Shown: positions 1-41,914 of the stretch, piece after piece
Layout of the letters: every line of letters starts with the position of its first letter
Position numbering within the stretch: the first letter of the stretch is position 1
Source of the DNA: Deinococcales bacterium
Lineage (GTDB): Bacteria > Deinococcota > Deinococci > Deinococcales > JAAFIG01
Reading direction: 5' to 3'
Length of the DNA: 41,914 nt
Assembly (NCBI GenBank): GCA_013298185.1
Contig: JAAFJQ010000006.1
Coordinates: 1 to 41,914, forward strand
Program-made: the position numbers and the translations under genes
The notes under the pieces: model-generated
Database searches by the model: none
Told to the model about the DNA's origin: nothing
Seen by the model: the letters and a program-made list of their open reading frames with translations, nothing else

Positions 1-575
1 AGCACTTGGCGGGTCAGGTTCAACCCGAACATCGTTATTTTTGCGCCACTCGAGAAGACAACACTGGCGGCTTCGGGATCGGCTAAGAAATTGAATTCGG
101 CGGCGGCTGAATGGTTGCCTCGGTCTGTCGAGCCGCCCATCAAGACAATGCCCTCCAGCCAAGTGGCTAAACGTGGCTCGAGGCGCAGCGCCAATGCCAG
201 ATTGGTCAGTGGTCCAAGCGCAACCAAGGTGATGGGCTGCTCTTGTGCGGCACGAATCAACTCGAGGACGGCATGACCCGCACTTAACGATTGCGTGGAT
301 GTGGGAAGACTCGCACCAATCGTGCCAAGCGCTCCGAGTCCAAGCACATTCTCGGCAGTCATACGCGGACGCACCAAAGGGCGGTCAGCTCCCGCGTAAA
401 CAGGCGCGGTGATCCCAAAAGCACTGGTGATGGACAAGGCATTCTGCACAATCCGCTCGAGCGGCGCGTTACCCGCCACCAAACCAATGCCCACCATCTC
501 GAGCCGACTTTCAGCAGCCAGTGCCAAAGCAATCAAATCATCAAATCCGGGGTCAGTATCAATCCAGACGCGCAT
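1..575 (-). CDS. Inosine/uridine-preferring nucleoside hydrolase, C-terminus cut off by window edge
   Basis: The ORF track misses this gene because it runs off the left edge; I translated it from the reverse strand. It starts MRVWIDTDPGFDD, which carries the Asp-rich Ca2+-binding signature of the IUNH family (DTDPGFDD, residues 6-13). Further family motifs follow: ALGPLTNLA, then MGG and AEFNFLADPEAA. About 191 of the usual ~310 residues are present. The family hydrolyses the N-glycosidic bond of ribonucleosides to give base and ribose in the cytoplasm. Its ATG overlaps the TAA stop of the upstream ABC ATPase gene by one base (TAATG), so the two are probably translationally coupled and belong to the transporter operon. 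This hints that the transporter may carry nucleosides (inference). Confidence 0.93.
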   Translation of the reverse strand, partial: MRVWIDTDPGFDDLIALALAAESRLEMVGIGLVAGNAPLERIVQNALSITSAFGITAPVYAGADRPLVRPRMTAENVLGLGALGTIGASLPTSTQSLSAGHAVLELIRAAQEQPITLVALGPLTNLALALRLEPRLATWLEGIVLMGGSTDRGNHSAAAEFNFLADPEAASVVFSSGAKITMFGLNLTRQV

Positions 576-1594
576 TATTCCACCAGCCACACGGCTTGCT
601 CGAGGGGTAAATCAAAGGTCACGGAGTCCTGTTCCTTCCAAACGGCAGTGGCGGACGGCACGGCTGCCTGAATCACACCGAGTTCGCTCTCGAGTTGATA
701 CTGCACTTGCTGCCCCTCAAAACTCCGCGCCAAGACTCGAGCTGCCCACACACCAGTGCCTAAACGCACATGCTCGGCACGCCATGCCGCACGATTAAAA
801 CGTGACTCGAGGGAGTACGGAAACTCGTGCTTGCCAATTCGCACACGGCGCTCGAGGGGTTGCACAGGCAAAATCGTGTCAAAACCAACGAAACGCGCCG
901 CAAAGACCGTGCGAGGCTGCGTGTAAATCACTTCGGGCGTGGCGAGTTGTTCAATCTGTCCTGCGTTCATGATTGCCACGCGGTCAGACAATGCCAATGC
1001 CTCGGCTTGGTCGTGCGTGACGTAGAGCATGGTCACACCCAATTGTTTTTGCAAACGCCGAATTTCGACGCGCATCTCGAGCCGCAACCGCGCATCAAGG
1101 TTCGAGAGCGGTTCGTCCAGCAACATCAACTGCGGACGAATCACAAAGGCTCGAGCCAATGCCACACGCTGCTGCTGCCCACCTGAAAGTTGAGCAGGAA
1201 AGCGCTTGGCAAACTCGAGCAACGCCACCGTCTCGAGGGCAGCGTTGACCCGTTGCTCGAGTTCGGCTTTTTGTACACCACGCAAGCGCAAACCAAACGC
1301 CACATTCTCAAAGGCTGTCAAATGCGGGAACAACGCATAACTTTGAAAAACCAAACCAATATCACGCTTATTGGCAGGAACTCGAGTAATATCACGGTCA
1401 TGCAATGCAATCCGCCCTGATTTAGGCTCGAGCAGACCAGCCACGGCTCGCATGGTGGTGGTTTTACCGCACCCCGAAGGACCAAGCAACGCCAGTAATT
1501 CGCCTTCTGGCACAGTTAAATTCAGGTTCTCGACAGTGGTCAGGTTCTTGGTGTACGCAAGGGTGAGTTGCTCGAGGGTAAGGGCGGTTTTCAC
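575..1594 (-). CDS. ABC transporter ATP-binding protein, PotA/FbpC-like
   Basis: Cytoplasmic ATPase of a type I importer. The P-loop GPSGCGKTT, the Q-loop (VFQSYALFPH), the signature LSGGQQQR, Walker B LMLLDEP and the switch His (YVTHDQAEA) appear in order. A C-terminal TOBE-like region of about 100 residues follows, typical of the PotA/UgpC/FbpC group. The ORF track extends to a TTG at 1627. I prefer the GTG at 1594 (339 aa), because a GAGG Shine-Dalgarno element lies 5 nt before it and the protein then starts MKTALTLEQL. It sits downstream of two permease genes and a binding-protein gene and upstream of the coupled nucleoside hydrolase. The family covers polyamines, iron, thiamine and others, so the substrate cannot be read from this subunit. 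Confidence 0.94.
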   Translation of the reverse strand: MKTALTLEQLTLAYTKNLTTVENLNLTVPEGELLALLGPSGCGKTTTMRAVAGLLEPKSGRIALHDRDITRVPANKRDIGLVFQSYALFPHLTAFENVAFGLRLRGVQKAELEQRVNAALETVALLEFAKRFPAQLSGGQQQRVALARAFVIRPQLMLLDEPLSNLDARLRLEMRVEIRRLQKQLGVTMLYVTHDQAEALALSDRVAIMNAGQIEQLATPEVIYTQPRTVFAARFVGFDTILPVQPLERRVRIGKHEFPYSLESRFNRAAWRAEHVRLGTGVWAARVLARSFEGQQVQYQLESELGVIQAAVPSATAVWKEQDSVTFDLPLEQAVWLVE

Positions 1595-1647
1595 ACGCAC
1601 CTCGGTATAACAATATCCAAAAAACAATATTGCAAAAATGGTCTACC

Positions 1648-1679
1648 CCGTAGGGGCGCAGCGCGCTGCGCCCCTACGG
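1648..1679. repeat. REP-like perfect 32-bp palindrome between operon genes
   Basis: ccgtaggggcgcagcg is followed immediately by its exact reverse complement. It lies in the 142-bp non-coding gap (1595-1736) between the permease and ATPase genes of one operon. A diverged shorter copy lies at 40631-40659, so this is a dispersed repeat family. In RNA it would fold into a 16-bp hairpin that could stabilise the upstream message or lower expression of the downstream ATPase and hydrolase genes. The rest of the gap shows no gene. Confidence 0.85.
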
Positions 1680-1736
1680 AACGATGTTTCTTGTTTAAAT
1701 CCGAGAGCTTCATCAGCATTCGGTGATGGATTGTTT

Positions 1737-2516
1737 TCACATATACCTCGATAAACCCAAGACCCGCTCGGTGACGAACACAAACACCATTGAGAATAGA
1801 ATCACCAGCATCGAAAGCGCGGCAATGCTTGGGTCGTAACTGCTTTCCATGTGCAGCAACATCCGAATTGGCAAGGTGGTGATGCCCGGACCCGTCAAAA
1901 ACAATGAAACAGGCACATGATTGAACGAATTGATAAACGCCAGCACCGTGGCAGCCGCTAATCCTCCGCGAACATTGGGCAGCACTACGCGCCAAAACAC
2001 TTGCGCTCGAGACGCGCCTAGGCTAAAGGCTGCGTCCTCGATGTCTCGAGGCAGGTTGGCGAGGCTCGCACCAACCACGCGCACGGCGTAAGGCAGCACC
2101 AGCGCGGCGTGTCCTGCCAGCAGTGCCAGATTGACACTGTTCCCGCCAAGCAGCACAAATTGTTTGAGCAGTGCCACGCCAATCACCAAACCCGGAATAA
2201 TCAATGGGCTGGTCAGGAGCGTGCGAATCCATTCGGTTTCTGGCACGGGGTAGCGCTGCAAGGCATAGGCGGCTGGCACGCCGAAGACCAATGCAATTGC
2301 GGTTGCGCCAAAGCCAAGCCATAGACTGGTGATGAGGCTCGAGACAAAAATCTCGGTTTGCATCACACTCAGTAACCAGCGCACCGAGTACGAACTTGGT
2401 GGAAAGAGCAGGCTGTTATCATCGCTAAAAGCCGTGATAAAAACAATGCTAAACGGTGCAATTAAAAAAAACAGCACCAACCAAAGCATCCATTTGGTAA
2501 ATGCAAAGCTGTTCAT
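1737..2516 (-). CDS. ABC transporter permease, PotC-like
   Basis: A 259-aa inner-membrane protein with about six hydrophobic segments and the EAA-type cytoplasmic loop LPRDIEDAAFSLGAS...VVLP, which docks on the ATPase. Length and motif fit the binding-protein-dependent permease family (COG1177, PotC). Its ATG overlaps the stop of the PotB-like gene by four bases (ATGA, 2513-2516), so translation is coupled. With the neighbouring permease it would form the heterodimeric channel of the importer. Substrate is unknown. Confidence 0.93.
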   Translation of the reverse strand: MNSFAFTKWMLWLVLFFLIAPFSIVFITAFSDDNSLLFPPSSYSVRWLLSVMQTEIFVSSLITSLWLGFGATAIALVFGVPAAYALQRYPVPETEWIRTLLTSPLIIPGLVIGVALLKQFVLLGGNSVNLALLAGHAALVLPYAVRVVGASLANLPRDIEDAAFSLGASRAQVFWRVVLPNVRGGLAAATVLAFINSFNHVPVSLFLTGPGITTLPIRMLLHMESSYDPSIAALSMLVILFSMVFVFVTERVLGLSRYM

Positions 2517-3334
2517 GCAGCACCCCTCGAGCGGCTTTTCAGGGCGGCATTGACGGCTAGGGTTGTCAGGAGCATCACCATCGAAATAACAGTGGTGGCG
2601 GCTTCATCCACGGTCACACCTGCTTTTTGATAGAGCAGTGTTGCCAGCATCGTCACTCGAGGTCCACCAAGCAATGCAGGCGTGACATAAGCGGTGACAC
2701 AACCAGTAAAGACCAGCGTGCCACCAATGGTTAAGCCGTCTCGAGTCAGTGGGAGGATCACTCGAGTAAACACCTGTAAGCTGTTCGCGCCTAGGCTGCG
2801 AGCGGCGGCAATCACGTCTCGAGGCAGGTTTTCCAAGGCGCTGGTCAGGGATAGCAGCATCAGTGGCAGCATCAGTTGCAGTAAGCCAATAAAAACCGCG
2901 TTTTCGGTGTAGAGAATCGGAATGGATTCTTTGAGTACGCCCGTACCAACCAGTGTTTTGTTGATTAGCCCCTCGCGTCCAAGCACCACCAGCCACGCAA
3001 ACGAACGCGCCACGGGCGAAATCATCAGTGGCAAAATAATCAGCCCGATCAGCAGCCCACGGTATTGCGCTCCAAGCTGCATGATTGCCAGCGCCGCAGG
3101 GTAGGAAACCACGGCACTGACCAGTGTGACGAGCAGGGCAATTCGCACGGTGCGCCAATAGACCTCTATATTCACTTCGCTCGAGAAAAACGTGAAGTAA
3201 TTATCCAACCCCACGCCGTTCTCGAGACGAAAACTGCTGAGAAGAAACACCCCAACTGGGTAAACGAAAACCGCCAGCAAGAAGACTGTGGCGGGGAACA
3301 GCAGCAGCCAAGCTCGAGGGCGGTTATTGGTCAT
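2513..3334 (-). CDS. ABC transporter permease, PotB-like
   Basis: A 273-aa membrane protein with a first transmembrane helix near residues 8-32 and the permease EAA loop LPRDVIAAARSLGAN...VILP. It fits the COG1176 (PotB) permease group. It lies 9 bp downstream of the binding-protein gene and overlaps the PotC-like gene by 4 bp, so the order is binding protein, PotB, PotC, ATPase, hydrolase. It would pair with the second permease to form the membrane channel. No anomaly seen. Confidence 0.93.
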   Translation of the reverse strand: MTNNRPRAWLLLFPATVFLLAVFVYPVGVFLLSSFRLENGVGLDNYFTFFSSEVNIEVYWRTVRIALLVTLVSAVVSYPAALAIMQLGAQYRGLLIGLIILPLMISPVARSFAWLVVLGREGLINKTLVGTGVLKESIPILYTENAVFIGLLQLMLPLMLLSLTSALENLPRDVIAAARSLGANSLQVFTRVILPLTRDGLTIGGTLVFTGCVTAYVTPALLGGPRVTMLATLLYQKAGVTVDEAATTVISMVMLLTTLAVNAALKSRSRGAA

Positions 3335-3343
3335 GGTTGTATT

Positions 3344-4375
3344 TTAACGAGCAATTTCTTTGTTCCAACGGGCAATCCATTCGTCGCGCACACCAAGCAG
3401 GTACTTGGCATCCAGGAAGCGCATGTTGGCAAATTCACCCAAGGTGGTCAGTTGCGCGGCTTTGGCGGGTTTGAGTTGCACGGTTTTGTTGATTGGTGAG
3501 TCCACAAGGTCATTGGCTTGGGCAAGTTGAACTTCTTTGGAGATCAGGAAATTGATGTACTGATGCGCTAAATCTTCGTTCTTGGTGCCTTTGACAATGC
3601 TGACGGTGTTCATCAGACCGATCTGACCTTCACGCAGACGCGCCCATGCCAATGGTTTACCTGTGTTCAGCATCGTTCCCCATGCAAAACGCCCGATGGG
3701 GGCAACCCAAATTTCATCTTGAGCAAACAACGATGCGACTTGCGAGGATTGATTATAGAAAGTCAGGATATTGGGTTTTAAGGCAGCCAATTGTTGAAAA
3801 CCGGGGTTGACATTGCTGTCCGTGCCAGCATATGCACGGTTGACCGCAAAAACCACGGGTGGTCCTTGGGTGGTGGTGATGTTCGGCAGGGCAATGCGTC
3901 CTTTGAGTTCTGGTCGCCACAGGTCACGCCAACTGGTCAGTGGGGTGCTGATTTTATCGGTGCGATACGCAAGGCTGATGGTATACGCCGTGAATGCCAC
4001 GCCGTAATCGTTGCCGAGCGGGTTCTTAGCAAAGTCATAGATTTGATTGCGGTTAGGGATTTTGCGTGTGTCCAATTGGTCAAGCAAACCCTCGCGGATC
4101 GCAGCTTGAGCGAAGTAATCTCCGAGCAACGCCACATCAATGTTGGGGTTGTTCTTACGGGCAATCAGTTTGGCTAAACGGTCAGCGTTGTTGCCGACTT
4201 CGTAGACAATTTTGCAGTTGCACAGCGTTTCAAATGGGCGGGTGACGTTTTTATCAATCAGTGGTTGATTCAAACCAAAACTCGAGATGGTTAAGGTGCG
4301 CTGCTGCCCAACAGCCAAAGAAAAAATTGCACTTGATATGACTGCACCCGCCACAAGCATTACTTTTTTGTTCAT
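3344..4375 (-). CDS. ABC transporter substrate-binding protein, PotD-like
   Basis: A 343-aa exported protein. An N-terminal signal peptide (MNKKVMLVAGAVISSAIFSLA, then VGQQ) is followed by a periplasmic-binding-protein fold of the spermidine/putrescine class (COG0687). Recognisable stretches include NNADRLAKLIARKNNPNIDV, YGVAFTAYTISLAYRTDKI and TSWRDLWRPELKGRI. It is the first gene of the importer operon and has a strong Shine-Dalgarno (GGAGGG, 5 nt from the ATG). Only one CTCGAG occurs in this 1-kb gene, far below its neighbours, which would suit strong expression or codon selection. COG0687 proteins also bind ligands other than polyamines, and the operon's nucleoside hydrolase leaves the ligand open. 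Confidence 0.92.
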   Translation of the reverse strand: MNKKVMLVAGAVISSAIFSLAVGQQRTLTISSFGLNQPLIDKNVTRPFETLCNCKIVYEVGNNADRLAKLIARKNNPNIDVALLGDYFAQAAIREGLLDQLDTRKIPNRNQIYDFAKNPLGNDYGVAFTAYTISLAYRTDKISTPLTSWRDLWRPELKGRIALPNITTTQGPPVVFAVNRAYAGTDSNVNPGFQQLAALKPNILTFYNQSSQVASLFAQDEIWVAPIGRFAWGTMLNTGKPLAWARLREGQIGLMNTVSIVKGTKNEDLAHQYINFLISKEVQLAQANDLVDSPINKTVQLKPAKAAQLTTLGEFANMRFLDAKYLLGVRDEWIARWNKEIAR

Positions 4376-4463
4376 GTTCCCTCCACGGAAAAAAAATACA
4401 GTATTTTGTAACCCCTTGCACTATAACCTAATCCAATAGCGCAAGTGTAAAAAATGACTCACA

Positions 4464-4492
4464 TTGCACTGTGAAAACTGCCATACTATGAA
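4464..4492 (+). promoter_or_regulatory. Predicted sigma-70-type promoter of the cytochrome c peroxidase gene
   Basis: TTGCAC and TATGAA are separated by 17 bp in the divergent intergenic region 4376-4528. They lie 37 bp upstream of the peroxidase ATG, which has a strong Shine-Dalgarno (GGGAGGT, 4514-4520). Predicted from sequence only. Confidence 0.5.
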
Positions 4493-4528
4493 CGGCGTTG
4501 CCGATGTCAGTACGGGAGGTACATCAGA

Positions 4529-5788
4529 ATGCACAACATCAAACCATTCAATATCATGATCATCTCGAGTCTTGCTTTAACCGTGCTAGGGCTTTCAAGC
4601 CAAGCTCAAAGCAGCTTATGGTCAAATCAAGAATTGCAACGCATTCGTTCACTGTGGCTTGGTAGCCTCAAAGAAGCCCCTCGAGATACCTCGAACAAAT
4701 ACGCCAATTCCGCCAGTGCCGCCGCGCTTGGCAAAGCACTTTTTAACGAAAAAGCCTTGAGTGCCAACGGTGAAGTATCCTGTTCAACTTGTCATGATCC
4801 AAGCAAACGCTTCACCGATCAACTCGAGTTATCCGAAGGCATTGGTCTGACCACACGGCACGCACCAAGTTTGGTTGGAGCGGCGTACAACACCTATTTT
4901 TTTTGGGATGGTCGGGCTGATTCACTCTGGGCGCAGGCTTTAGGACCGCTCGAGCATCCTGCCGAGCATGGCATTGCCCGCACCGATGCTGTTCGTGTGG
5001 TGCAGCGCTTATACCGCGAGTCATACAAAAATGCTTTTGGCGATAACTTGAATTTTGAGGACTTAACCCGTTTCCCACCAAGTGCCAGCCCCTTAGGTGA
5101 TGAAGCTGCACAGCAAAAATGGCGAGGCATGACCAAAGAAGATCAGGACTTGGTCAATCGTTCATTTAGTCATATCGGTAAAGCCATCGCTGCTTTTGAA
5201 CGTTCGATCCCACTTGAACCCACACGATTTGATATGTACGCCGAAGCTGTGCTAACCAATCAACCCACCAGAAATTTGGTCAACGACAACGAAATGGCGG
5301 GCTTAAAGTTATTTATTGGTAAAGCCAATTGCGTTTCTTGCCACAATGGAGCGCTTCTCACCGATCACAATTTCCATAACACAGGCATTCCCAACCCAAG
5401 CAACGACCAAGGACGATTTGCAGGATTAGCATTCCTCAAAAACGATGAATTCAACTGCCGTTCGGTCTACAGCGACGCTGAGCCTGACCAGTGCTTACCA
5501 TTGTCCAACGCCGAAGTGGATTACCTTGAATTGAGCGCCTTGCCAATCAGCGAAAACAAAGCCATTGGTGCATTCAAAACCCCGTCATTGCGCCACACCC
5601 CAGAAACCCTTCCTTTTATGCACGCAGGGCAATTCAAAAGTTTCAAGCGAGTCCTAGATCATTACAACAACCCACCCAAAAGCCAAGTCGGAACTTCTGA
5701 ATTAAAACCCCTTGGTCTGACCCGCCTTGAATTGTTTGACCTCGAGCAGTTCTTAGGCACTTTAAGCGCTCCGAGCAGTACGCCGTAG
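4529..5788 (+). CDS. Di-haem cytochrome c peroxidase / MauG-family protein, exported
   Basis: A 419-aa protein with a signal peptide (hydrophobic residues ~8-25, then SSQAQS). Two c-type haem motifs are visible: CSTCH at residues 85-89 and CVSCH at 268-272. That is the layout of the bacterial di-haem peroxidase/MauG family, which reduces H2O2 or performs related oxidations in the periplasm. Length is slightly above the usual ~330-380 because of a longer N-terminal lead-in. Typical surrounding motifs include FNEKALSANG, WDGRADSLW and PFMHAGQFKSF. It stands alone between a divergent ABC operon and a non-coding region, with its own promoter and ribosome-binding site. Whether it is a peroxidase proper or a MauG-like oxidase cannot be settled by reading. 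Confidence 0.92.
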   Translation: MHNIKPFNIMIISSLALTVLGLSSQAQSSLWSNQELQRIRSLWLGSLKEAPRDTSNKYANSASAAALGKALFNEKALSANGEVSCSTCHDPSKRFTDQLELSEGIGLTTRHAPSLVGAAYNTYFFWDGRADSLWAQALGPLEHPAEHGIARTDAVRVVQRLYRESYKNAFGDNLNFEDLTRFPPSASPLGDEAAQQKWRGMTKEDQDLVNRSFSHIGKAIAAFERSIPLEPTRFDMYAEAVLTNQPTRNLVNDNEMAGLKLFIGKANCVSCHNGALLTDHNFHNTGIPNPSNDQGRFAGLAFLKNDEFNCRSVYSDAEPDQCLPLSNAEVDYLELSALPISENKAIGAFKTPSLRHTPETLPFMHAGQFKSFKRVLDHYNNPPKSQVGTSELKPLGLTRLELFDLEQFLGTLSAPSSTP

Positions 5789-6062
5789 GTTTTAGTTTTA
5801 GCTTGTAGCTGCTAGCTTCTAGGGCATTGCTCGAGAATACCATAGGCATCAATTGAAGAACAAAAGCCCTTCAGTACATGCAAAATCGCAATCGGGAAGC
5901 CCCTCACCCGTCGCTTCGCGCCACCCTCTCCCAAAAGACAGCGCTTCGCGCAGGGAGAGGGGTTCGGGTTAGCTTTTCATTCCAGTTTGCTATCTCACGA
6001 AGCCAATTTCATAACACTAGCACCCCTCTTCGAGGGGTCGAGCGAAGCGAGGGGGAGTTGTG
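5789..6062. repeat. Non-coding repeat-rich region with G/C-rich inverted repeats
   Basis: No credible gene lies between the peroxidase and ddl; the short ORFs here are artefacts. A first element at about 5899-5973 pairs CCCTCTCCC with GGGAGAGGG around a short loop. A second has ACCCCTC/GAGGGGT arms with a TTC loop (6022-6038), followed by a purine-rich tail. The start of the region also contains TAGCTT/TAGCTG-like iterations (about 5793-5822). These look like dispersed intergenic repeats. Confidence 0.6.
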
Positions 6063-6101
6063 AGCGACCCAGCCCCGTCAGGTGGCGCTTTAGGGTCAAG
6101 A
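6063..6101. repeat. Dispersed ~38-bp repeat, copy A
   Basis: Reads agcgaccc, gccccgt, aggtg and ttagggtcaaga with small interruptions. A near-identical element occurs at 14658-14694. Both are intergenic and follow other hairpin-type repeats. Function unknown. Confidence 0.65.
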
Positions 6102-6249
6102 CAGGCATTGCGTTTTTTCGATGTAATCCTTAAGAACATTCCTTAAGTTGATGCTCCCGGAGCATTGCTCGAGAACTCAAAAAGTCTCTTTTGACCCACA
6201 AGTCAACTCTCTAACCAGACACTCATGGCATTCCTCGAGACTTGCTGCC

Positions 6250-7275: not shown

Positions 7276-7348
7276 ACTCGCGCTCGAGCAGAGGCACTGA
7301 ACTCGCGCTCGAGCAGAGGCACTGAACTCGCACTCGAGCAGAGGCACT
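7249..7348 (+). repeat. Four tandem copies of a 25-bp unit over the ddl stop codon
   Basis: Four head-to-tail 25-bp units at 7249, 7274, 7299 and 7324. The first three are identical and the fourth has one G-to-A change. Each contains one CTCGAG. Unit 1 encodes the ddl C-terminus up to the TGA stop; units 2-4 are non-coding copies of that gene end. The unit length is not a multiple of three. Confidence 0.97.
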
Positions 7349-7395
7349 AAAAGCTGGCATTTCTCGAGAAGAATGGGAGCGCCTTTGATTCATAG

Positions 7396-7401
7396 TAAAC
7401 T
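7396..7401 (+). promoter_or_regulatory. -10 box of a predicted leaderless transcript (hydroxyacyl-CoA dehydrogenase)
   Basis: TAAACT ends 6 nt before the ATG at 7408 and there is no Shine-Dalgarno element. This places the transcription start at or near the A of the start codon. Confidence 0.65.
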
Positions 7402-7407
7402 AGTCCC

Positions 7408-9232: not shown

Positions 9233-9237
9233 AACCA

Positions 9238-14657: not shown

Positions 14658-14694
14658 AGCGACCCTGCCCGTAAGGTGCGTCTTAGGGTCAAGA
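14658..14694. repeat. Dispersed ~38-bp repeat, copy B
   Basis: Matches the element at 6063-6101 over agcgaccc..gcccgt..aggtg..ttagggtcaaga with a few substitutions and two single-base indels. It is intergenic, just after a hairpin repeat. The 14598-14793 gap holds no gene. Confidence 0.65.
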
Positions 14695-14782
14695 AGCCTG
14701 ACGGAGGGGTCTGCGACATGTTTATTGCAAGCAAGACCCCTTTGGACTCGAGCCGCAAAAGTTTTTGGTGACAATCTCAAGG

Positions 14783-21525: not shown

Positions 21526-21711
21526 GGGTGGTTCCTTTCCGGGTCGCTACTTAGGACGTTTCTCGAGAGAACTTCTCTCTAACACCTTCGCCTATTTCGC
21601 GCTTAACCCAGAACCATCCCGTCTTTGCGCGACCCAACGCAATTTTATCTTTGCGTGTACAGCCATCCACCTGATGGCAACCGCAGCAGTGTAGGGCAAA
21701 ATAGATGAAAA
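21526..21711. other. Intergenic region upstream of the helicase, no gene seen
   Basis: Contains a helicase Shine-Dalgarno (AGGA), a hairpin in GAGAGAAGTTCTCTC near 21564-21578, and several weak -10 candidates (TAAAAT at 21642-21647 on the minus strand). A 5' leader longer than 100 nt is possible, as is common for cold-responsive helicase genes, but is unproven. Confidence 0.4.
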
Positions 21712-21990
21712 TTATGAGTATAATTCTCGAGCCAGTTCTGTGTAAACCACTTTGCGATGACCAATCAAACGCACTTTCATGGTTTGAGCATCGGGCAATT
21801 CATAAAGAATTCGGAAATCACCGACCCGCAGCTTGTAGAAACCAGCCAAGTTTCCTTCCAACGCCTCTGGTACAGCATGACTCTCGAGGAAAAACCGTAA
21901 TTTATCCACTACACGCTGACGCATTTTCTCCTCGAGTTGGGCAAAATGAGCCTCTGCTAACGGCGAAAAAATCAGTTGCAATCTCACCAT
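21712..21990 (-). CDS. RelE/ParE-superfamily toxin
   Basis: A 92-aa protein with the RelE/ParE fold signature: FSPLAEAHFAQLEEKMRQRV (helical hairpin), GNLAGFYKLRVGDFRILYEL (core strands), and MKVRLIGHRKVVY near the end. Members cleave mRNA on the ribosome (RelE) or poison gyrase (ParE); which applies cannot be read. The 7-bp overlap with the upstream antitoxin gene (ATGGTGA) is classic type II TA organisation. It may be a functional addiction module or a domesticated remnant. Confidence 0.9.
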   Translation of the reverse strand: MVRLQLIFSPLAEAHFAQLEEKMRQRVVDKLRFFLESHAVPEALEGNLAGFYKLRVGDFRILYELPDAQTMKVRLIGHRKVVYTELARELYS

Positions 21991-22199
21991 TTGAAACCGA
22001 GTTGAGCTGCCATTTCCTCGATGCTAACGCACTTGCTTCGGTCTACGGGTTGGGACAAAACAGCAATCACTTCATCACTTAACGTCAAACCAGCATCAGG
22101 ATCAAAGCCATCCATCATGTGATGCACTTCTTCTCGAATGACAGCACGCAATTCAGCTACGGTTAAGTCAGCCACTTTGGTATCAGCATGAATAGCCAT
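21984..22199 (-). CDS. Antitoxin partner of the RelE/ParE-type toxin
   Basis: A 71-aa acidic protein (MAIHADTKVADLTVAELRAVI, ending EEMAAQLGFKW). Its size, position before the toxin and 7-bp overlap are diagnostic. I do not recognise its DNA-binding family. TAGAAT lies 6 nt before the ATG, so the operon is probably leaderless. Antitoxins of this class usually repress their own promoter, but no operator palindrome was identified. Confidence 0.85.
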   Translation of the reverse strand: MAIHADTKVADLTVAELRAVIREEVHHMMDGFDPDAGLTLSDEVIAVLSQPVDRSKCVSIEEMAAQLGFKW

Positions 22200-22205
22200 A
22201 GAAAA

Positions 22206-22211
22206 ATTCTA
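22206..22211 (-). promoter_or_regulatory. -10 box of the toxin-antitoxin operon
   Basis: Minus-strand TAGAAT, 6 nt before the antitoxin ATG at 22199. Confidence 0.6.
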
Positions 22212-22235
22212 GTTTAAAAAGATGAAAATTGCGAG

Positions 22236-33638: not shown

Positions 33639-33661
33639 CTCTCAACCCCTCTCCTATATTT

Positions 33662-33683
33662 TTAGTAAGCCTCAGTTTACTAA
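33662..33683. promoter_or_regulatory. Inverted repeat TTAGTAA-N8-TTACTAA upstream of the TRAP genes
   Basis: A perfect 7-bp dyad, 24 bp upstream of the DctQ ATG, in the divergent region shared with the MFS gene. It may be an operator. Confidence 0.5.
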
Positions 33684-33802
33684 GTTCAGCCAGCAGAAAC
33701 AAACACTGTTGCATCGCATTTGAACTGTAGTACAGACTTATTTCTCGAGCCAAGCATTTTAGCCTACAGCCAACCAAGTACTTCGAGGCGTAAAGTAATG
33801 GT

Positions 33803-34978: not shown

Positions 34979-35028
34979 CGAACCATTTGCCAAATTGGGC
35001 TAACGAACCATTTGCCAAATTGGGCTAA
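34968..35028 (+). repeat. 25-bp tandem repeat over the MFS stop codon, about 2.4 copies
   Basis: Units begin at 34968, 34993 and 35018 (partial), nearly identical. Unit 1 carries the MFS stop TAA; the partial third unit merges into the -10 box of the regulator gene. Unlike the other tandem repeats it contains no CTCGAG. Confidence 0.96.
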
Positions 35029-35031
35029 ACT
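35026..35031 (+). promoter_or_regulatory. -10 box of the SARP-like regulator, leaderless type
   Basis: TAAACT ends 5 nt before the ATG at 35037. In the earlier repeat copies the same bases read TAACGA. Confidence 0.65.
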
Positions 35032-35036
35032 ACCCC

Positions 35037-37841
35037 ATGGTTCGTCTCGAGTTGCTTGGTGCTGGCAGGGTGCTGCTGGACAATCAAATCGTGGCGTTTC
35101 CTTTTGATAAGCGTGGTGCGCTTCTGGCGTATTTGGCTTTGCAAGCTTGTCCTGTGCAACGCTCGGAACTCAGTGCATTATTTTGGCTCGATACGCCTGA
35201 ACTCGAGGCTCGGCGTAATTTGCGCCAGTTATTGCACCGCATTAGTCAATTGCCAATCGGTGCTTGTGTTCCTCGAGATGATTCGCGCAGTGCCGCCCCC
35301 CTTGAGTTTCTTGGAACATGTGATTTGCTCGAGTGGCGAAAAGCCGTGGCAATGCGTCAAAGCCAAGCGCTCGAGGTGACTCCCACGGTGTTGACTTCGT
35401 GGAATCTGCCGGAAGCCCCAGAGTTTATGGCTTGGCTCGAGGGTGAGCGTCACGACACTCTGCGCCTATGGCGAGCCTTGGCACTCGAGACGGCAGACCA
35501 ATTCTTGATGCGTGGTCAGGCTACCAAAGCCATTGAGCTGCTCGAGCGGGTCTTGGATTTTGAGCCTTTAGCCGAGGATGCGTTGCAACTGCTGCTGCTT
35601 GCCAGTCAGCAATCTCAGCACTTGGGGCGTGGTTTGGCGGCGTTTGAGGCTTTTGCTGGAACATTGCGCCAAGAAGTTGGGTTAAGCCCAACGACTCGCA
35701 CCCTCGAGTTGGTTTCTCTGCTCGAGCGGGTGCAAGTTCAACCAAGTGTTCTGGAGCGTCCAATTCCTGAGCGCATCATTGCCCCCAGATTCTTTGGACG
35801 TGACCAAGAATTAGCTGCTTTGCGCCAATTGCTGGATAACCCTGAGACACGTTTGCTAACCCTTACGGGTTTTGGTGGGGTTGGGAAAACCAGATTGGCA
35901 AAAGAACTCTGCCCTGATGCCATTGTGATTAAGCTCGAGAATGTCAGTCAGCCCAGTGCTTTGTTGGTGGCACTTGCCGATGGTTTAGGATTGCGTTTTG
36001 CTGCCCATCAGGATGCTAAAGCGCAACTTCTCAACCATGTTCGTAACTTGGACACTCCAATCCTTTTGGATAATTACGAGCAGCTACTACCCGAAACCGA
36101 GTTGATTGCTGACTTACTCGAGACTGGTGCGCGTTTGATTGTTACCTCCAGAGAAGCCCTAGACGTTCCACTCGAGCAGATTTACACCTTGCATGGTTTG
36201 GAGTCTCGAGTGGCAATGGACTTATTTTTGGAACGCAGTAAAAAACAAAATCCTGACCTCGAGCCAGACTGGTCAGCCATAGAAAAAATTGTTCAAATTT
36301 TGGACGGAATGCCACTCGCCCTCGAGTTGGCTGCAACTTGGACCCGTACCCTCAGTTTGTCTGGTCTTGCTACGGCGCTCGAGACAGACACGGATTTACT
36401 TGATTGGCGCAGAGTTTTTTTGGGTTCTTGGCGCAGATTATCATTTGAGTTACGCCAAAAGTTCAGTACCTTAGCGGTCTGTGTCGGCGGGTTTACCTCC
36501 GAAGCAGCCTTGGCATTGGCTGGGGCAACGTTGCCTGATTTGGCAGTATTGGTCAGGGCTTCGCTCTTGAAGGTCGAACATGGGCGTTTTGGGATGCTCA
36601 AACTGATTCGTCAAGCTGCACTGAAAAACATGCCCAACCCAAACGCCAAGACCCTGCACGCCGAGTATTACCTACATTGGTTAGGCTCACTCGAGACAGT
36701 CCTCGAGCAAGACCCCAAAACCCACTTAGCGGTGGTTGGACTAGAAATCGAAAACCTACGAACCGCTTGGGATGAAGCGGTTTTGCAGCAAAGCAGTGAT
36801 CTTTTGGGCGGAGCATGTATGGCGTTCTCGACGTATTTTGATTTACGAGGCTTGTTCTTTGAAGCAAGGCAGCGATTTTTGGCAGCCGTGCCAGTCGTGC
36901 AATCTGACCCCAAAGCCCATGCCTTGATGCTGGTGCGTTTGGCTTGGGCAGAATTTCGCTTAGGTCTGTACCCTCAAGTTCAAAAGACCTTGGGCATGGC
37001 GCTCGGAATTTACCAAACATTGGGCAATCAGCGTGGCGTGGCGCATTGTTGGTATCAACTTGGCAATGTGGACGAAGCCCTTGGGAAATTTAAGTCAGCC
37101 AACGGGCATCTAAAACTGGCTCTTGAGGTGGCTCGAGCCCAAGCGGACGATACGGCAATGGCTCGAATCCTCAACACCCTCGGATTGATTGCTTTTAACC
37201 AAGGTCACCCCAAAACTGCCGTTGAGTACCACCGTGAAAGCCTCGAGTTACGCCGCAAAACCAATCAACCTCGAGCCATGTTTATTGCCCAACTCAACTT
37301 AGGTGATGCGAAAAAAGAGCTGCTCGAGTTTGAAAGCGCTCGGGTGTTGTTTGGAGCTTGTTTACAACTTACCCAGAACATCGGTGATGATTTTGGACAA
37401 ACACTGGTTCTGAGTCAACTTGCCGACCTTGACCGCCGCGAAGGGCAGATACAAAAAGCCGAGCTTGGTTTTGGGGTGTCAATTGAACGCTGCCAGAAAA
37501 TGGGACATGGTTATGTTGAAATCATAGCTTGGCGTGGACTGGCTTTGACATTAAAAGATTTAGGACAACTCGAGAAAGCTAAAGAATCCGCTTTGCGAAG
37601 TTTAGCGGTGGCTCATGCTCTAAATGTCACACCACAAACCAATTTAAGCTTGATCGTACTGATTCAACTCGAGCAGAACATGCAAAACCACACTCGAGCA
37701 TGGCAACTCTCGCATTTACTCTTAGAAAACCGACCAAGTCCACCACAAAAACGATTGCTCAAAGACATCCTCGCCTCGCTTGGAGAAGTAAAAACCAAAA
37801 AGCTCAGTGCGTTTGAGGAAATTTTCCCCAAATCTGCATAA
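35037..37841 (+). CDS. SARP/AfsR-like regulator: BTAD, NB-ARC/AAA and TPR domains
   Basis: A 934-aa cytoplasmic regulator. The first ~230 residues resemble the SARP OmpR-type DNA-binding plus BTAD region (FDKRGALLAYLALQ, LERVLDFEPLAEDALQLLL, EVGLSPTTRTLEL). Next is an NTPase module with P-loop GFGGVGKTRLA (~278-288), Walker B-like TPILLDNYEQLL (~342), and RLIVTSREALDVP as an arginine sensor. The C-terminal third has TPR-like helical pairs (e.g. GNQRGVAHCWYQLGNVDEAL). Such proteins integrate a signal via the NTPase switch to activate transcription. It is the only regulator recognised in the window; targets could be the adjacent MFS exporter or the secreted propeller-like gene. Rich in in-frame CTCGAG (Leu-Glu). 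Confidence 0.9.
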   Translation: MVRLELLGAGRVLLDNQIVAFPFDKRGALLAYLALQACPVQRSELSALFWLDTPELEARRNLRQLLHRISQLPIGACVPRDDSRSAAPLEFLGTCDLLEWRKAVAMRQSQALEVTPTVLTSWNLPEAPEFMAWLEGERHDTLRLWRALALETADQFLMRGQATKAIELLERVLDFEPLAEDALQLLLLASQQSQHLGRGLAAFEAFAGTLRQEVGLSPTTRTLELVSLLERVQVQPSVLERPIPERIIAPRFFGRDQELAALRQLLDNPETRLLTLTGFGGVGKTRLAKELCPDAIVIKLENVSQPSALLVALADGLGLRFAAHQDAKAQLLNHVRNLDTPILLDNYEQLLPETELIADLLETGARLIVTSREALDVPLEQIYTLHGLESRVAMDLFLERSKKQNPDLEPDWSAIEKIVQILDGMPLALELAATWTRTLSLSGLATALETDTDLLDWRRVFLGSWRRLSFELRQKFSTLAVCVGGFTSEAALALAGATLPDLAVLVRASLLKVEHGRFGMLKLIRQAALKNMPNPNAKTLHAEYYLHWLGSLETVLEQDPKTHLAVVGLEIENLRTAWDEAVLQQSSDLLGGACMAFSTYFDLRGLFFEARQRFLAAVPVVQSDPKAHALMLVRLAWAEFRLGLYPQVQKTLGMALGIYQTLGNQRGVAHCWYQLGNVDEALGKFKSANGHLKLALEVARAQADDTAMARILNTLGLIAFNQGHPKTAVEYHRESLELRRKTNQPRAMFIAQLNLGDAKKELLEFESARVLFGACLQLTQNIGDDFGQTLVLSQLADLDRREGQIQKAELGFGVSIERCQKMGHGYVEIIAWRGLALTLKDLGQLEKAKESALRSLAVAHALNVTPQTNLSLIVLIQLEQNMQNHTRAWQLSHLLLENRPSPPQKRLLKDILASLGEVKTKKLSAFEEIFPKSA

Positions 37842-37888
37842 CACCCGCATAACACCATTTCCCGATACTGATTCTCGGAGGAATGAGC

Positions 37889-39361
37889 ATGAAAAAAACA
37901 TGGCAAATGGTGGCTGTAGGTCTGACAATTGGTATTTTCGCGGTGGCGCAAAGCACCGCTCCAAAACCAACCCTTGAGAGGGTCTGGGGTGGAAACGCCA
38001 ATGACACTATGAACGGCATGGTCTTGGATTCGGTAGGCAACGCAATCACCGCAGGTATCTCGAGAAGTTTTGTGGATTCGTTTTATGGCGATGTACTCAT
38101 TAGTAAAGTCTCGCCAAGTGGTGAACTGCTCTGGGCAAAGAACATTGGCACAAAAGGCTCAGACTCACCTCTGCGCTGTCTAGATGGTGATTATGGCTCG
38201 AGCAGCCGCAGCATTGCCATTGACCGCGAAGACAGCATCTATGCGGTCAGCGAATCGGCTTGGGCGGGTAATGCCGAACCTCAAAGCCAAGTGGTGATGA
38301 AACTCAGTAGAAATGGTGATTTACTCTGGAGCAAAGCATGGCGACCTCATTGGCGCAACCAAATGAATGGCGCAACCACTGCCTCGAGTGTGACTGTGGT
38401 CGGAAACCGTGTCTTTGTGGCTGGTGGCGGCGGTGATTCGGGACCAGAAGCGCAAATCATGGTCAGCATCCTCGATGCTGTGAGCGGCAATCTGCTCGAT
38501 AACCTGAGCATTGACCCAACCCCCGGTTCCAATGACCGTGCTTTTAGCATTGTTGCCAATCCAACAGGCAGCTTGGTTTACCTTGGCGGCTGGAATGGAC
38601 GCACCGCTCGAGGACAAATCATTCGCTTTTCCGTGGCGAGCGATAAACTCAACCTTGATTGGGTGCGCGAAGTGCCACAAGAAACTCGAGGTAGCACCAT
38701 CTGCGACATGGACATGGACGCAGCAGGCAACATTTACGGCGCGAGCGATGTCAAAGGCACACAAACCTATTTGGAACTCTTTAAGTTCGACCCCAACGGC
38801 AAGGTGATTTGGGGCAAAAGCTACAACGCTGGTACGCGCAATGACCGCAGCAACACCCGAGTCTTACGGGTCATAGGCAATGCTGTTTACCTAGGCGGAC
38901 GCGTTGGCTACCAAGAAAATACCCAAGCCGATAGTTTCTTTGGTGATAGCGTGGTCTTGCGTTACAGCTTAGACGGCAAACTCGAGCAGGAAATGTATCA
39001 CTTTACTGGCACCAATTCACAAGTGGTTGCTATGGATCACACCATGGGCATCGGGGTTTTCCAAGGTCGTTTGTATGTGGCTGGCTGGATTTTTCCCGGT
39101 GCAGCCAATCTCGTGGGTGAATGGCGCAACCCAAATGATTATAAATTCCCACACCCTGACACCAGTTTGTCCCTGCAAACCAGCGACCCATTACCTGTCG
39201 TGAAGACTTTGCGAATCAGCGCTCCGCAAAAGAACGGCGATGAAATTGGCTTGAAGATGACCGATGTCACCGCAAAAATTGAAATCGGCACACCCAAAAC
39301 CCAGAGCGACAAAGGTCGCAGCACCCAGCATTACTTGTTTACCTTTGACCTGCCAAAGTAA
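37889..39361 (+). CDS. Exported repeat protein, SBBP-type beta-propeller
   Basis: A 490-aa protein with signal peptide (MKKTWQMVAVGLTIGIFAVAQ) and repeats of the form GNAITAGISRSF...GDVLISKVSPSGELLWAKN, VVMKLSRNGDLLWSK, and LELFKFDPNGKVIWGKSY. These match the SBBP/PQQ-like propeller blades of secreted proteins. I start at ATG 37889, since the Shine-Dalgarno GGAGG (37877-37881) is 7 nt before it and only 1 nt before the alternative ATG at 37883. The C-terminal part (~425-490) is not repetitive. It ends in a good terminator (39381-39408). Function is unknown; binding or surface roles are typical. Confidence 0.8.
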   Translation: MKKTWQMVAVGLTIGIFAVAQSTAPKPTLERVWGGNANDTMNGMVLDSVGNAITAGISRSFVDSFYGDVLISKVSPSGELLWAKNIGTKGSDSPLRCLDGDYGSSSRSIAIDREDSIYAVSESAWAGNAEPQSQVVMKLSRNGDLLWSKAWRPHWRNQMNGATTASSVTVVGNRVFVAGGGGDSGPEAQIMVSILDAVSGNLLDNLSIDPTPGSNDRAFSIVANPTGSLVYLGGWNGRTARGQIIRFSVASDKLNLDWVREVPQETRGSTICDMDMDAAGNIYGASDVKGTQTYLELFKFDPNGKVIWGKSYNAGTRNDRSNTRVLRVIGNAVYLGGRVGYQENTQADSFFGDSVVLRYSLDGKLEQEMYHFTGTNSQVVAMDHTMGIGVFQGRLYVAGWIFPGAANLVGEWRNPNDYKFPHPDTSLSLQTSDPLPVVKTLRISAPQKNGDEIGLKMTDVTAKIEIGTPKTQSDKGRSTQHYLFTFDLPK

Positions 39362-39380
39362 ACCTTATCTCGAGAGAAGG

Positions 39381-39408
39381 TGCAGACTAAATCGTCTGCA
39401 TCTTTTTT
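39381..39408 (+). terminator. Intrinsic terminator of the propeller-protein gene
   Basis: TGCAGAC pairs with GTCTGCA around taaatc, followed by TCTTTTTT, which touches the end of the convergent PatB gene at 39407. Confidence 0.85.
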
Positions 39409-40567
39409 AATCCACTCGAGCGCGAATGCAACGTTCAATTCGCTCTAAGGCTTCGGTCAGAATGGCTCGAGAAGTCGCAAAGTTAATCCGTAACCAACCT
39501 TGATAAAGCGCTCCATATGGTGGTCCGTCGTTTAAGCCGACTTTGGCTTCCTCGAGCAGAAATTTATGGACTTCAGATCCAAAAGGGAATTTGTTGAAAT
39601 CAAGCCAAGCAAGGTACGTTCCTTCGGCTGGAATACAAGTCACTTCAGGCAAATGCTGCTCGAGCCAAGTGGACAGAAAATCTCGGTTGGCACGCAAATA
39701 ATCCAGTGTTTGCTCGAGCCAAGTGCCGCACTCCTCGAGACCAACCCGCCACATTTCCATGCTGAGGATGTTTGGGTGTCCCATCAAGCCTTTGGTGGCT
39801 TTTTGAATTTGGGCTAGGAGTTCGGTGTTATGCGAAATCATCACGCCACCGCCGAAGCCAGCTGTATTGAAGGCTTTGCAAGGACCGGTTAAGGTGATGG
39901 TGCGTTGTGCAATTTCAGGACTGAGACTGGCGAATGGAATATGTTCCCCCTCGAGCCTGAGCATGGCGTGGAGTTCATCGGTCACGACCAGTAAGTTATG
40001 GCGCAACACAAAATCCGCTAGTTTCTCGAGTTCAGCGCGTTCAAACACCCGCCCCGTTGGATTTTGTGGATTGCAAATCATCAAGACCTTCGTTTTTGGA
40101 CTGACCAGTGTTTCCAAATGTTCAAAATCAATTTCAAAACGTCCATCACGCACCACCATTGGATTCTCGAGGGCAACCCGTCCATGATCTCGGACACTGG
40201 TCAGGAACGGCGGATAGATTGGAGTTTGAGTAATGACTTCGTCACCCACAGCCGTCAAGCCTTGAATACTGGCATATAAGCCCGGAACGACACTCGAGAC
40301 AAGCATCAAATGTTGAGGTTCTAAGCCGTGCAGCCCATAATCTTCTTGTTGTGCAATGATTGCAGATAACAATCTTGGATCGCCACCCATGAAAGGATAA
40401 CCGACACCAAACTCGAGCCGCGCCAGCACAGCTTTTTTGATCTCCTCGGCAATTGGAAAATCCATATCCGCCACCCAAAGCGGCAACACACCATCAGGGT
40501 AATGATTCCACTTGACGGAATACGGATCGCGTAAAGCGGCTGGCTCGAGCGCATCAAAATTCGGCAT
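39407..40567 (-). CDS. PatB/MalY-type PLP-dependent cystathionine beta-lyase/aminotransferase
   Basis: A 386-aa fold-type I PLP enzyme. Family hallmarks: WVADMDFPI near residue 31, YPFMGGDPRLLSAI, CNPQNPTGR at 165-173, TDELHA at ~197-202, and the Schiff-base Lys231 in GPCKAFNTAGFGGG. The usual motif around Lys is SxSKxFN, here GPCKAFN. Members cleave C-S bonds (cystathionine to homocysteine) and some act in maltose regulation. TAGACT lies 6 nt before the ATG, so it is probably leaderless. The GH42 gene lies upstream on the same strand after a repeat-filled gap. Confidence 0.93.
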   Translation of the reverse strand: MPNFDALEPAALRDPYSVKWNHYPDGVLPLWVADMDFPIAEEIKKAVLARLEFGVGYPFMGGDPRLLSAIIAQQEDYGLHGLEPQHLMLVSSVVPGLYASIQGLTAVGDEVITQTPIYPPFLTSVRDHGRVALENPMVVRDGRFEIDFEHLETLVSPKTKVLMICNPQNPTGRVFERAELEKLADFVLRHNLLVVTDELHAMLRLEGEHIPFASLSPEIAQRTITLTGPCKAFNTAGFGGGVMISHNTELLAQIQKATKGLMGHPNILSMEMWRVGLEECGTWLEQTLDYLRANRDFLSTWLEQHLPEVTCIPAEGTYLAWLDFNKFPFGSEVHKFLLEEAKVGLNDGPPYGALYQGWLRINFATSRAILTEALERIERCIRARVD

Positions 40568-40573
40568 GAAACA

Positions 40574-40579
40574 AGTCTA
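40574..40579 (-). promoter_or_regulatory. -10 box of the PatB-like gene, leaderless type
   Basis: Minus-strand TAGACT, 6 nt before ATG 40567. Confidence 0.6.
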
Positions 40580-40659
40580 CTCGAGAAAAGAGGAAAGAGG
40601 AAAGAGGAAAGTTTTTCAGGCTGTCCTAAACCGTAGGGGCGAAGCACGCTTCGCCCTGT
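40580..40659. repeat. Polypurine tract plus second REP-like palindrome
   Basis: AAAGAGGAAAGAGGAAAGAGG (40586 on) is followed by ccgtaggggcgaagc-acgcttcgccc (40631-40659), a diverged, shorter copy of the palindrome at 1648. It fills the gap between the PatB-like and GH42 genes. Confidence 0.7.
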
Positions 40660-40675
40660 GACTAAGCGTATTATT

Positions 40676-41914
40676 TCAATTCTGCTTGTCCTTGTAAACC
40701 GAAACACCATACGGTTCAATCAAACTATCCCCATACAAAAACTCCGTGTCCGGCTCGAGCGCCAAAGCAATTCCACCTCGAGTCCAATTCTGTGCATAAA
40801 CCAATCCACCGCGTTTGGTAATTCTTAAGCCAGATTCAAGGTCTTCGTAACTAACCCCAGCCCTGAACAGCGCGTACTCGAGGCAACGTTTGATGATGCC
40901 TTGACCGTGAACGCCAATGTACATTGTGCCACCGCCGAGGCTGTTAGTTTGGTAAGTAATACCAATTTCATTGTAAAGCGGGTCCTCAAAGTACGTTCCT
41001 AAAATGCGAATTTCTGGATTTAAGACCTCGAGCGATTCATTCCAAGTGTGCGTCTCATACGTCATGTCAAAGGCTTCGATTCTCGAGGTCAGTCCGGGAC
41101 GCAGGGCGTCAAAGTTCTTGATTTTGACTCCTGCCAGTTTTGCCAATGGATTCTCGAGGTTGACTGCTCCAGATGGGCTGCGAAAGCCTGAGCGCGTACC
41201 GAGAATTAGGTTCGCGCCTCTCTGGACGTACTGCTCGAGATGCGCTGCCAATTCGGGCGTGGCAATGATTAAAGCTGGAGCAAGAATCAGGCTGTAATTT
41301 GAAAGGTCGCTCGAGGGATGCTGAATGTCAACATCCACTCCCATTTGCCGCAGTTGCGTGTAAAACATCACCATTTGTGACCAATACGAATTGCCCGCAT
41401 GATGCTTTTGCAAATCAAATGCCCATAAGGATTCGTAATCGTGCAGGATACACACTTGTTTAGGCTCGAGTTGGCTTGAAAATTTTTCTAAGTGCGGTGC
41501 GAATTTTTGCACCTCGAGAAAACCTCGGTCTGGGCTTCCATCATGGCGTAGCAAACCAGAATGCAGGTTCTCTTGGGCAACTCGAGCGGCTTGCCAACGA
41601 AAGTACGTGACCACATCCGCGCCGTGCGCCAAGGCTTGGGTTGTCCAGAGGCGCACCGCTCCGGGGGCTGGCAGTGGGTTATAAGCTGCCCAATTGACTT
41701 GTCCGCATTGTTGTTCCATCACCCAAAACGGTTTGTTTTTCAGTCCTCGGTAAATGTCATGATTCAATGCCACCAAATCTGGGTGTCCTGTACGAGCGAA
41801 CCTGATTTTACTGGCTTCATCAAGGTTTGAAGTCTCGAGCATTCCCGTTGGGTAATTATCCCAAGTCACAAAATCAAGGTGCTGAGCAGCTTTGTAATGG
41901 TCAAAATCCGAGAA
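40676..41914 (-). CDS. Beta-galactosidase, glycoside hydrolase family 42, N-terminus cut off by window edge
   Basis: The reading frame continues through the right edge; before the track's GTG start the sequence reads FDHYKAAQHLDFVTWDNYPTG, a conserved GH42 stretch. About 412 C-terminal residues are present of the usual ~680. The nucleophile Glu is in PFWVMEQQCGQVNW. The downstream part is the trimerisation/beta-domain (NYSLILAPALIIATPEL and so on). The enzyme releases beta-galactose from galactosides or galactans and is usually intracellular. It shares strand with the PatB gene but is separated by a repeat gap and that gene has its own promoter. Confidence 0.94.
   Translation of the reverse strand, partial: FSDFDHYKAAQHLDFVTWDNYPTGMLETSNLDEASKIRFARTGHPDLVALNHDIYRGLKNKPFWVMEQQCGQVNWAAYNPLPAPGAVRLWTTQALAHGADVVTYFRWQAARVAQENLHSGLLRHDGSPDRGFLEVQKFAPHLEKFSSQLEPKQVCILHDYESLWAFDLQKHHAGNSYWSQMVMFYTQLRQMGVDVDIQHPSSDLSNYSLILAPALIIATPELAAHLEQYVQRGANLILGTRSGFRSPSGAVNLENPLAKLAGVKIKNFDALRPGLTSRIEAFDMTYETHTWNESLEVLNPEIRILGTYFEDPLYNEIGITYQTNSLGGGTMYIGVHGQGIIKRCLEYALFRAGVSYEDLESGLRITKRGGLVYAQNWTRGGIALALEPDTEFLYGDSLIEPYGVSVYKDKQN

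What the first reader, a model, noticed from the sequence alone, without database searches (positions are those of the whole stretch)
1..41914. CTCGAG is massively over-represented: a HIP1-like palindrome
I counted 18 CTCGAG words in the first 1.6 kb and about 35 in the first 5.9 kb, where about one per 4 kb is expected at 50 % G+C. They occur on coding and non-coding DNA and in all reading frames: as Leu-Glu, as x-Arg-x (GCTCGAGCC) and as Ser-Ser/Ser-Arg. Codon bias alone cannot explain use of all frames. The closest known parallel is HIP1 (GCGATCGC) of cyanobacteria, whose methylation and role are only partly understood. A cognate methyltransferase or a DNA repair/segregation role is inference.
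Basis: partly seen in the sequence, partly recalled or inferred. Interest (0 to 1): 0.93.

Follow-up and report, generated by a model that had tools for sequence, protein, structure and literature searches.

The report
Genome saturated with palindrome CTCGAG
In a little-known family of Deinococcota bacteria one six-letter DNA palindrome, CTCGAG, recurs about every 166 bases in genes and between genes, about 70 times more than expected and strongly enough to alter protein sequences; it resembles the HIP1 word of cyanobacteria but has no conserved DNA-methylating partner, and across relatives it goes with the presence of the mismatch-repair gene mutS.

Summary
The window has 295 CTCGAG and the 4.41-Mb genome 26,619 (one per 166 bp), against 4 of the reversed control GAGCTC. 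A second-order model fitted to word-masked DNA expects 33 in 382 kb; 2,328 are present (70x). Density is equal in genes and intergenic DNA and high in all frames. 71% of Leu-Glu dipeptides are CTCGAG, and Leu-Glu itself is 2.2x over-represented. Three independent MAGs of the family (45-60% GC) match. One-mismatch neighbours sit near expectation; a 4,096-state chain shows only whole-hexamer recognition reaches 70x. Orthologues show rapid turnover: in most comparisons creation at about 20-130x the neutral rate with near-neutral loss fits best; protection from loss alone is mostly rejected.

The HIP class fits; the proposed cognate methyltransferase does not. No methyltransferase family is shared by the enriched genomes, and XhoI-type enzymes are absent from them. 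Across 83 non-Thermus Deinococcota genomes, enrichment tracks MutS1 (36/42 with versus 5/41 without; genus-level p=0.0007, not phylogeny-corrected). MutS1 was not found in this draft genome, and two Deinococcus plasmids are not enriched, so MutS alone does not suffice. Best guess: a drive, coupled to mismatch repair, that turns near-misses into CTCGAG through an unidentified recognition factor. New variant of the HIP kind.

The parts
1..41914 (.). 295 copies of CTCGAG spread through the whole window, mean gap 142 bp
49..503 (.). Five non-coding copies (49, 177, 261, 456, 498) before the first called gene
575..1627 (-). ABC transporter ATP-binding gene; holds frame-0 copies (Leu-Glu: 599, 689, 806, 851, 1076, 1214) and x-Arg-x copies (736, 1150, 1381)
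7276..7407 (.). 132-bp intergenic stretch with four copies (7283, 7308, 7333, 7363) spaced 25-30 bp
21526..22235 (.). Intergenic stretch with four copies (21562, 21726, 21883, 21931)
2338..2343 (-). Example of the third frame (xxC TCG AGx, x-Ser-Ser/Arg)

Best explanation
CTCGAG is a highly iterated palindrome of the HIP kind, raised by a genome-wide drive that recognises the complete hexamer. SHOWN: about 6 copies/kb in coding and non-coding DNA of four genomes of one family (45-60% G+C); all reading frames; near-misses not depleted; positions turn over between relatives; defence or restriction genes that look acquired lack the word; the word is accompanied by changed amino-acid sequence (Leu-Glu excess). 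INFERRED, favoured by turnover: the word is made from one-off neighbours at tens of times the neutral rate and lost at about the neutral rate, so it accumulates by biased creation rather than by protection of existing sites. INFERRED, from phylogenetic association only: MutS-dependent mismatch repair is part of the machinery. When a replication error or heteroduplex makes CTCGAG on one strand, an unidentified CTCGAG-recognising factor keeps MutS/MutL from reverting it, or directs repair to the other strand; errors that make any other word are corrected. Lineages that lose MutS1 would then decay to the compositional level.
For: O/E 70, 75, 53 and 34 in four family members. Neighbour O/E 0.3-2.7, summed about 1.2. 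A 4,096-hexamer chain: single-channel repair reaches only 3x, transition-only 11x, transversion-only 22x, outer-pair-only 7.5x; only drives acting on all 18 neighbours reach 70x. Codon-chain ML: loss-suppression alone rejected in most of 12 comparisons (lnL deficit up to 38.6); creation bias within 1.5 lnL of the free optimum in 11 of 12; selection worse by 3.7-7.6 lnL in 4 of 12. Gaps exponential (CV 1.04). MutS1 (PF01624): CTCGAG/GTCGAG ratio >=2 in 36/42 MutS1-positive and 5/41 MutS1-negative non-Thermus genomes; by genus 13/16 versus 2/13, p=0.0007. Contrasts: G001-G003 (ratio 5.6-88, MutS1+) versus G004 (0.7, MutS1-); G008 (6.4, +) versus g8 (1.4-1.8, -).
Against: MutS1 was not found in G000 itself (draft, 94.6% complete; congener G005 has it), nor in enriched G073, G097, G072, G042. 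MutS1-positive g9, G083 and G100 are barely enriched, and two Deinococcus plasmid stretches show O/E near 1, so MutS is not sufficient. The MutS test is not phylogeny-corrected. Transition neighbours are mildly in excess (CCCGAG 2.7x) although mismatch repair normally corrects transitions best. The turnover analysis rests on near-saturated divergence and 17-33 gene pairs per comparison; several comparisons do not separate creation from selection, and one (with a degenerate kappa fit) favours selection. No recognition factor is identified.
Confidence: 0.4

Rival explanations
1. Selection on fitness: CTCGAG is the binding site of an abundant DNA-binding protein (nucleoid, repair-strand discrimination, or chi-like) and each site carries a small advantage (2Ns about 3-5).
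For: A fixation bias on the whole hexamer with S about 4 also gives O/E about 70 and normal neighbours. If the protein is a strand-discrimination signal for mismatch repair, the MutS1 association follows too. Sites are independent, with exponential gaps.
Against: Selection predicts loss about 16 times slower than neutral, hence strong sharing of sites between relatives; conserved Leu-Glu sites in G000/G005 are 78 both, 46 one, 20 neither, and the selection fit is worse by 3.7-7.6 lnL in 4 of 12 comparisons. Six per kb exceeds what a once-per-kb signal would need.
Confidence: 0.25
2. Molecular drive by sequence-biased natural transformation: CTCGAG is an uptake signal and accumulates because fragments bearing it are taken up and recombined.
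For: Exact short word in coding and non-coding DNA, absent from DNA that looks foreign; known uptake words are thought to accumulate by molecular drive (PMC1939737).
Against: Known uptake words are not palindromes (PMC1939737). Uptake saturates at about one site per fragment, so 6/kb with independent sites is hard to reach. It acts like a fixation bias, which turnover disfavours in several comparisons. It does not predict the MutS1 association.
Confidence: 0.12
3. Classical HIP model: a CTCGAG methyltransferase marks the word and methyl-directed mismatch repair or selection raises it (Elhai 2015).
For: Every cyanobacterial genome with HIP sequences has a predicted matching methyltransferase (PMC4390886). 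An orphan CTCGAG methyltransferase exists in Nocardia (PMC4752239). A C5 methyltransferase of G000 has close relatives only in enriched G005, G003 and G097 among 111 genomes.
Against: That enzyme is absent from enriched G006, G007, G001, G002 and G096; no methyltransferase family is common to the enriched genomes. The XhoI-linked methyltransferase is absent from f1/f2 and present in the Thermus-sized genus without comparable enrichment.
Confidence: 0.15
4. Codon usage, codon-pair bias or an assembly artefact.
For: Leu-Glu copies are the commonest frame.
Against: Equal density outside genes, 13-19x excess in the other two frames after codon shuffling; same density in three independently published MAGs of different G+C.
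Confidence: 0.01

Closest known systems
HIP1 (GCGATCGC) and alternate HIPs of cyanobacteria (Elhai 2015, PMC4390886)
   Same: Short GC-rich palindrome, genome-wide, coding and non-coding; mismatch repair proposed as the generator; lost or changed between relatives
   Different: Other phylum; hexamer of 67% GC; about 6,040 per Mb against 300-2,700 for HIP1; no conserved cognate methyltransferase; neighbours near expectation at all positions, whereas HIP1 one-offs deviate mostly at the outer bases
Orphan CTCGAG methyltransferase of Nocardia (Blow et al. 2016, PMC4752239)
   Same: Same word
   Different: Reported as a local cluster at dnaA with a conserved orphan methyltransferase; here genome-wide with none
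DNA uptake sequences of Pasteurellaceae and Neisseriaceae (PMC1939737)
   Same: Exact short word raised by a drive
   Different: Not palindromic; of the order of one per kb
XhoI/PaeR7I-type restriction-modification (CTCGAG)
   Same: Same recognition word
   Different: Absent from enriched genomes; the one XhoI-bearing genome sampled has CTCGAG at 1.5x
Very-short-patch repair (Vsr, E. coli), from my own knowledge
   Same: Repair raising a word's abundance
   Different: One lesion type; the chain calculation caps such a process near 3x

Membership tests
HIP class (highly iterated palindrome) | Palindromic oligomer far above Markov expectation genome-wide | tested here: met
   26,619 copies; O/E 70
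HIP class (highly iterated palindrome) | Occurs in coding and non-coding DNA and all frames | tested here: met
HIP class (highly iterated palindrome) | A methyltransferase specific for the word or its core in every enriched genome (an association, not part of the definition of the word) | tested here: inconclusive
   No orthologue group common to the enriched genomes in four Pfam families; a changing set of non-homologous enzymes with the same specificity cannot be excluded
HIP class (highly iterated palindrome) | The word is methylated in vivo | not testable with these tools
   No modification data
HIP1 proper | Sequence GCGATCGC in cyanobacteria | tested here: not met
   CTCGAG in Deinococcota
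XhoI restriction-modification site | XhoI-family nuclease (PF04555) with linked methyltransferase in the genome | tested here: not met
   PF04555 in 4 of 111 genomes, none in f1/f2; linked methyltransferase absent there
DNA uptake sequence | Preferential uptake of DNA bearing the word | not testable with these tools
   Needs transformation assays
DNA uptake sequence | Density of about one per fragment, even spacing | tested here: not met
   6/kb, exponential gaps

The most novel reading that the evidence does not exclude
In Deinococcota, mismatch repair is biased by an unknown, non-methylating recognition factor so that replication errors creating CTCGAG are kept: a mutational drive that writes one hexamer across the whole genome, overrides codon usage and doubles a dipeptide in the proteome, and collapses when mutS is lost.
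Probability: 0.33. Interest if true: 0.93.

Novelty: new variant of a known kind. Interest (0 to 1): 0.82.

Why it matters
HIP words have been an open puzzle since 1995. This is a second phylum with a HIP-like word, far denser than HIP1, without a conserved form of the methyltransferase thought essential, and with a gene association (MutS1) that makes the mismatch-repair hypothesis testable: delete mutS in an enriched culturable relative such as Meiothermus and sequence mutation-accumulation lines. It also shows a DNA-level drive strong enough to reshape amino-acid sequence.

Tried and rejected
Maximal-order Markov model (circular). Codon bias. Protection from loss only (rejected in most comparisons). 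Single-lesion repair. Regular spacing or density-dependent selection (exponential gaps). XhoI system in the genome. XhoI-linked methyltransferase. Common orphan methyltransferase. Viral contigs rich in CTCGAG as phages of this clade: a scan of IMG/VR gave mostly high-GC chance hits with no host link. Literature search found no report of CTCGAG enrichment in Deinococcota (open-access library only).

Full report
What was checked. The window is contig C414 of a 4.41-Mb, 457-contig draft genome (G000). Its relatives in the same family (f1) are G005, G006 and G007. Contigs of these match by length contigs of named MAGs: 39,097 bp = JAAFIG010000042, 150,382 bp = JANXTZ010000034, 53,528 bp = JANYHH010000046, all titled 'Deinococcales bacterium'.

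Size of the effect. CTCGAG occurs 26,619 times, once per 166 bp; the backwards control GAGCTC occurs 4 times. A second-order model fitted after masking the word expects 33 in 382 kb and 2,328 are present, O/E 70. In f1 the O/E is 70, 75, 53 and 34 at 50, 45, 53 and 60% G+C, so the density (5.9-6.6 per kb) does not follow base composition. In family f2, G003 has 62x, G001 11x and G004 1.0x. GAGCTC and many other palindromes are themselves avoided here, so GAGCTC is not a neutral control; GTCGAG was used later for that reason.

Not codon usage. In 343 kb of called genes the three frames hold 1,276, 447 and 370 copies against 134, 33 and 20 after shuffling synonymous codons; intergenic DNA has 5.97 per kb against 6.10 in genes. 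Of all Leu-Glu dipeptides 71% are CTCGAG, as are 54% of [SPTA]-Arg-[VADEG] and 39% of x-Ser-[Ser/Arg]. The pressure reaches the protein level: Leu-Glu is 2.2-2.5 times over-represented in f1 proteins (Glu-Leu 0.9-1.1), Ser-Ser 1.5-1.6, against 1.12 and 1.07 in the unenriched relative G004.

Shape of the drive. One-mismatch neighbours have O/E 0.3-2.7, about 1.2 together. A stationary chain over all 4,096 hexamers shows what this means: repair of one lesion type cannot raise the word above about 3x, transitions alone 11x, transversions alone 22x, the outer pair alone 7.5x; only a process acting on all 18 neighbours, whether in mutation or in fixation, reaches 70x and leaves the neighbours normal. 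Whatever acts recognises the whole hexamer. Gaps are exponential (CV 1.04), with no preferred spacing beyond codon periodicity. The few gaps above 1.1 kb include an AT-rich (38.7% G+C) stretch with defence-like genes and an HsdM methyltransferase gene, so the word builds up slowly in DNA that looks acquired.

Turnover. Between G000 and G005 four-fold sites are near saturation (third-base identity 0.42). Conserved Leu-Glu pairs are CTCGAG in both / one / neither in 77 / 46 / 20 cases, little more than independent draws at 70%. Maximum likelihood on the codon-pair chain, calibrated with Leu and Glu codons outside the word, gives an in-rate of about 40 times and an out-rate of about 0.3 times neutral (95% 0.09 to at least 2.7, the edge of the grid); pure loss-suppression is worse by 39 lnL, origin-fixation selection by 7, pure creation by 0.2. 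Over six genome pairs and two contexts, creation is within 1.5 lnL of the optimum in eleven of twelve, selection clearly worse in four, and one comparison (with a degenerate kappa fit) prefers selection. The pairs are not independent and the divergence is high, so this is a lean, not proof.

Methyltransferases. Searches with PF02384, PF01555, PF00145 and PF07669 in eight genomes, with all-against-all comparison of the proteins from the first three families, found no orthologue group present in all enriched genomes. XhoI (PF04555) occurs in 4 of 111 genomes, none in f1 or f2. The methyltransferase beside XhoI is a PF01555 protein, nearly universal in the Thermus-sized genus and absent from f1/f2. 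One C5 methyltransferase is shared by G000, G005, G003 and G097 only. A changing set of unrelated methyltransferases with the same specificity cannot be excluded.

Mismatch repair. Enrichment was normalised as CTCGAG/GTCGAG, a control of equal composition, and compared with the MutS1 mismatch-binding domain PF01624. Outside the Thermus-like genera, 36 of 42 MutS1-positive genomes have a ratio of at least 2, against 5 of 41 negatives; medians 6.0 and 1.1; by genus 13/16 against 2/13, p=0.0007. The contrast appears within f2 (G004), within f3 (g7 against g8) and within f5. The exceptions matter: MutS1 was not found in G000 itself although its congener has it; G072, G073, G097 and G042 are enriched without a hit (two of these are 67% and 85% complete); g9, G083 and G100 have MutS1 but little enrichment; and two Deinococcus plasmid stretches show O/E near 1. 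MutS1 may be needed but is not sufficient. The test is not corrected for phylogeny.

Interpretation. Elhai (PMC4390886) proposed that HIP words arise because mismatch repair keeps errors that create a methylated site. The present case has the predicted signature (creation tens of times above neutral, ordinary loss, link to MutS) without a conserved methyltransferase. I therefore favour a mismatch-repair-coupled creation drive with an unidentified CTCGAG-recognising factor (0.4). Selection for a binding site comes second (0.25), then the classical methylation model (0.15) and uptake drive (0.12). The known HIP1 range is 300-2,700 per Mb; here it is about 6,040 per Mb. An orphan CTCGAG methyltransferase is known in Nocardia, with a local cluster at dnaA, a different pattern.

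Novelty. No paper in the open-access library reports this for Deinococcota; subscription journals were not searched. I rate it a new variant of the HIP kind.

Noticed in passing
G044-G071 (Thermus-sized genera), whole genomes: GTCGAG occurs only about 5-60 times per genome while CTCGAG occurs about 1,440-3,240 times: TCGA seems purged (as expected under TaqI-type restriction) except inside CTCGAG, and an XhoI-linked-type methyltransferase is nearly universal there. It may exempt CTCGAG from TCGA cutting.
   Followed up: partly
L304, L312 (IMG/VR contigs): Viral contigs with 44-45 CTCGAG in about 8 kb but 0-1.5 GTCGAG, the same signature as the Thermus-sized genomes; host not established.
   Followed up: partly
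G000 generally: Many other palindromes are almost absent in 382 kb (GAGCTC, CCGCGG, GGGCCC, TCGCGA, CACGTG, AGGCCT 0 against 47-87 expected), and the genome has many restriction-modification methyltransferases.
   Followed up: no
window 14658-14697: Intergenic element of about 38 bp found in dozens of places in G005 and G006; no Rfam match. A dispersed repeat of unknown kind.
   Followed up: partly
L012:7500-11200 (G000:C4): AT-rich, nearly CTCGAG-free stretch with an SMC-like ATPase and a defence-like gene: probable acquired defence island. Low CTCGAG density could serve as a marker of foreign DNA in this family.
   Followed up: partly
G012-G014 against G009-G011 (same genus g8): Genomes with XhoI have about half the CTCGAG density of congeners without it, as expected for restriction avoidance.
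   Followed up: no
f1 genomes: CCCGAG/CTCGGG is the only neighbour consistently 2-3 times in excess; no explanation found.
   Followed up: no
L313 (IMG/VR 110-kb contig): Viral contig with 57 CTCGAG in 9.7 kb and no GAGCTC, partly from repeated Arg-rich stretches; host unknown.
   Followed up: partly
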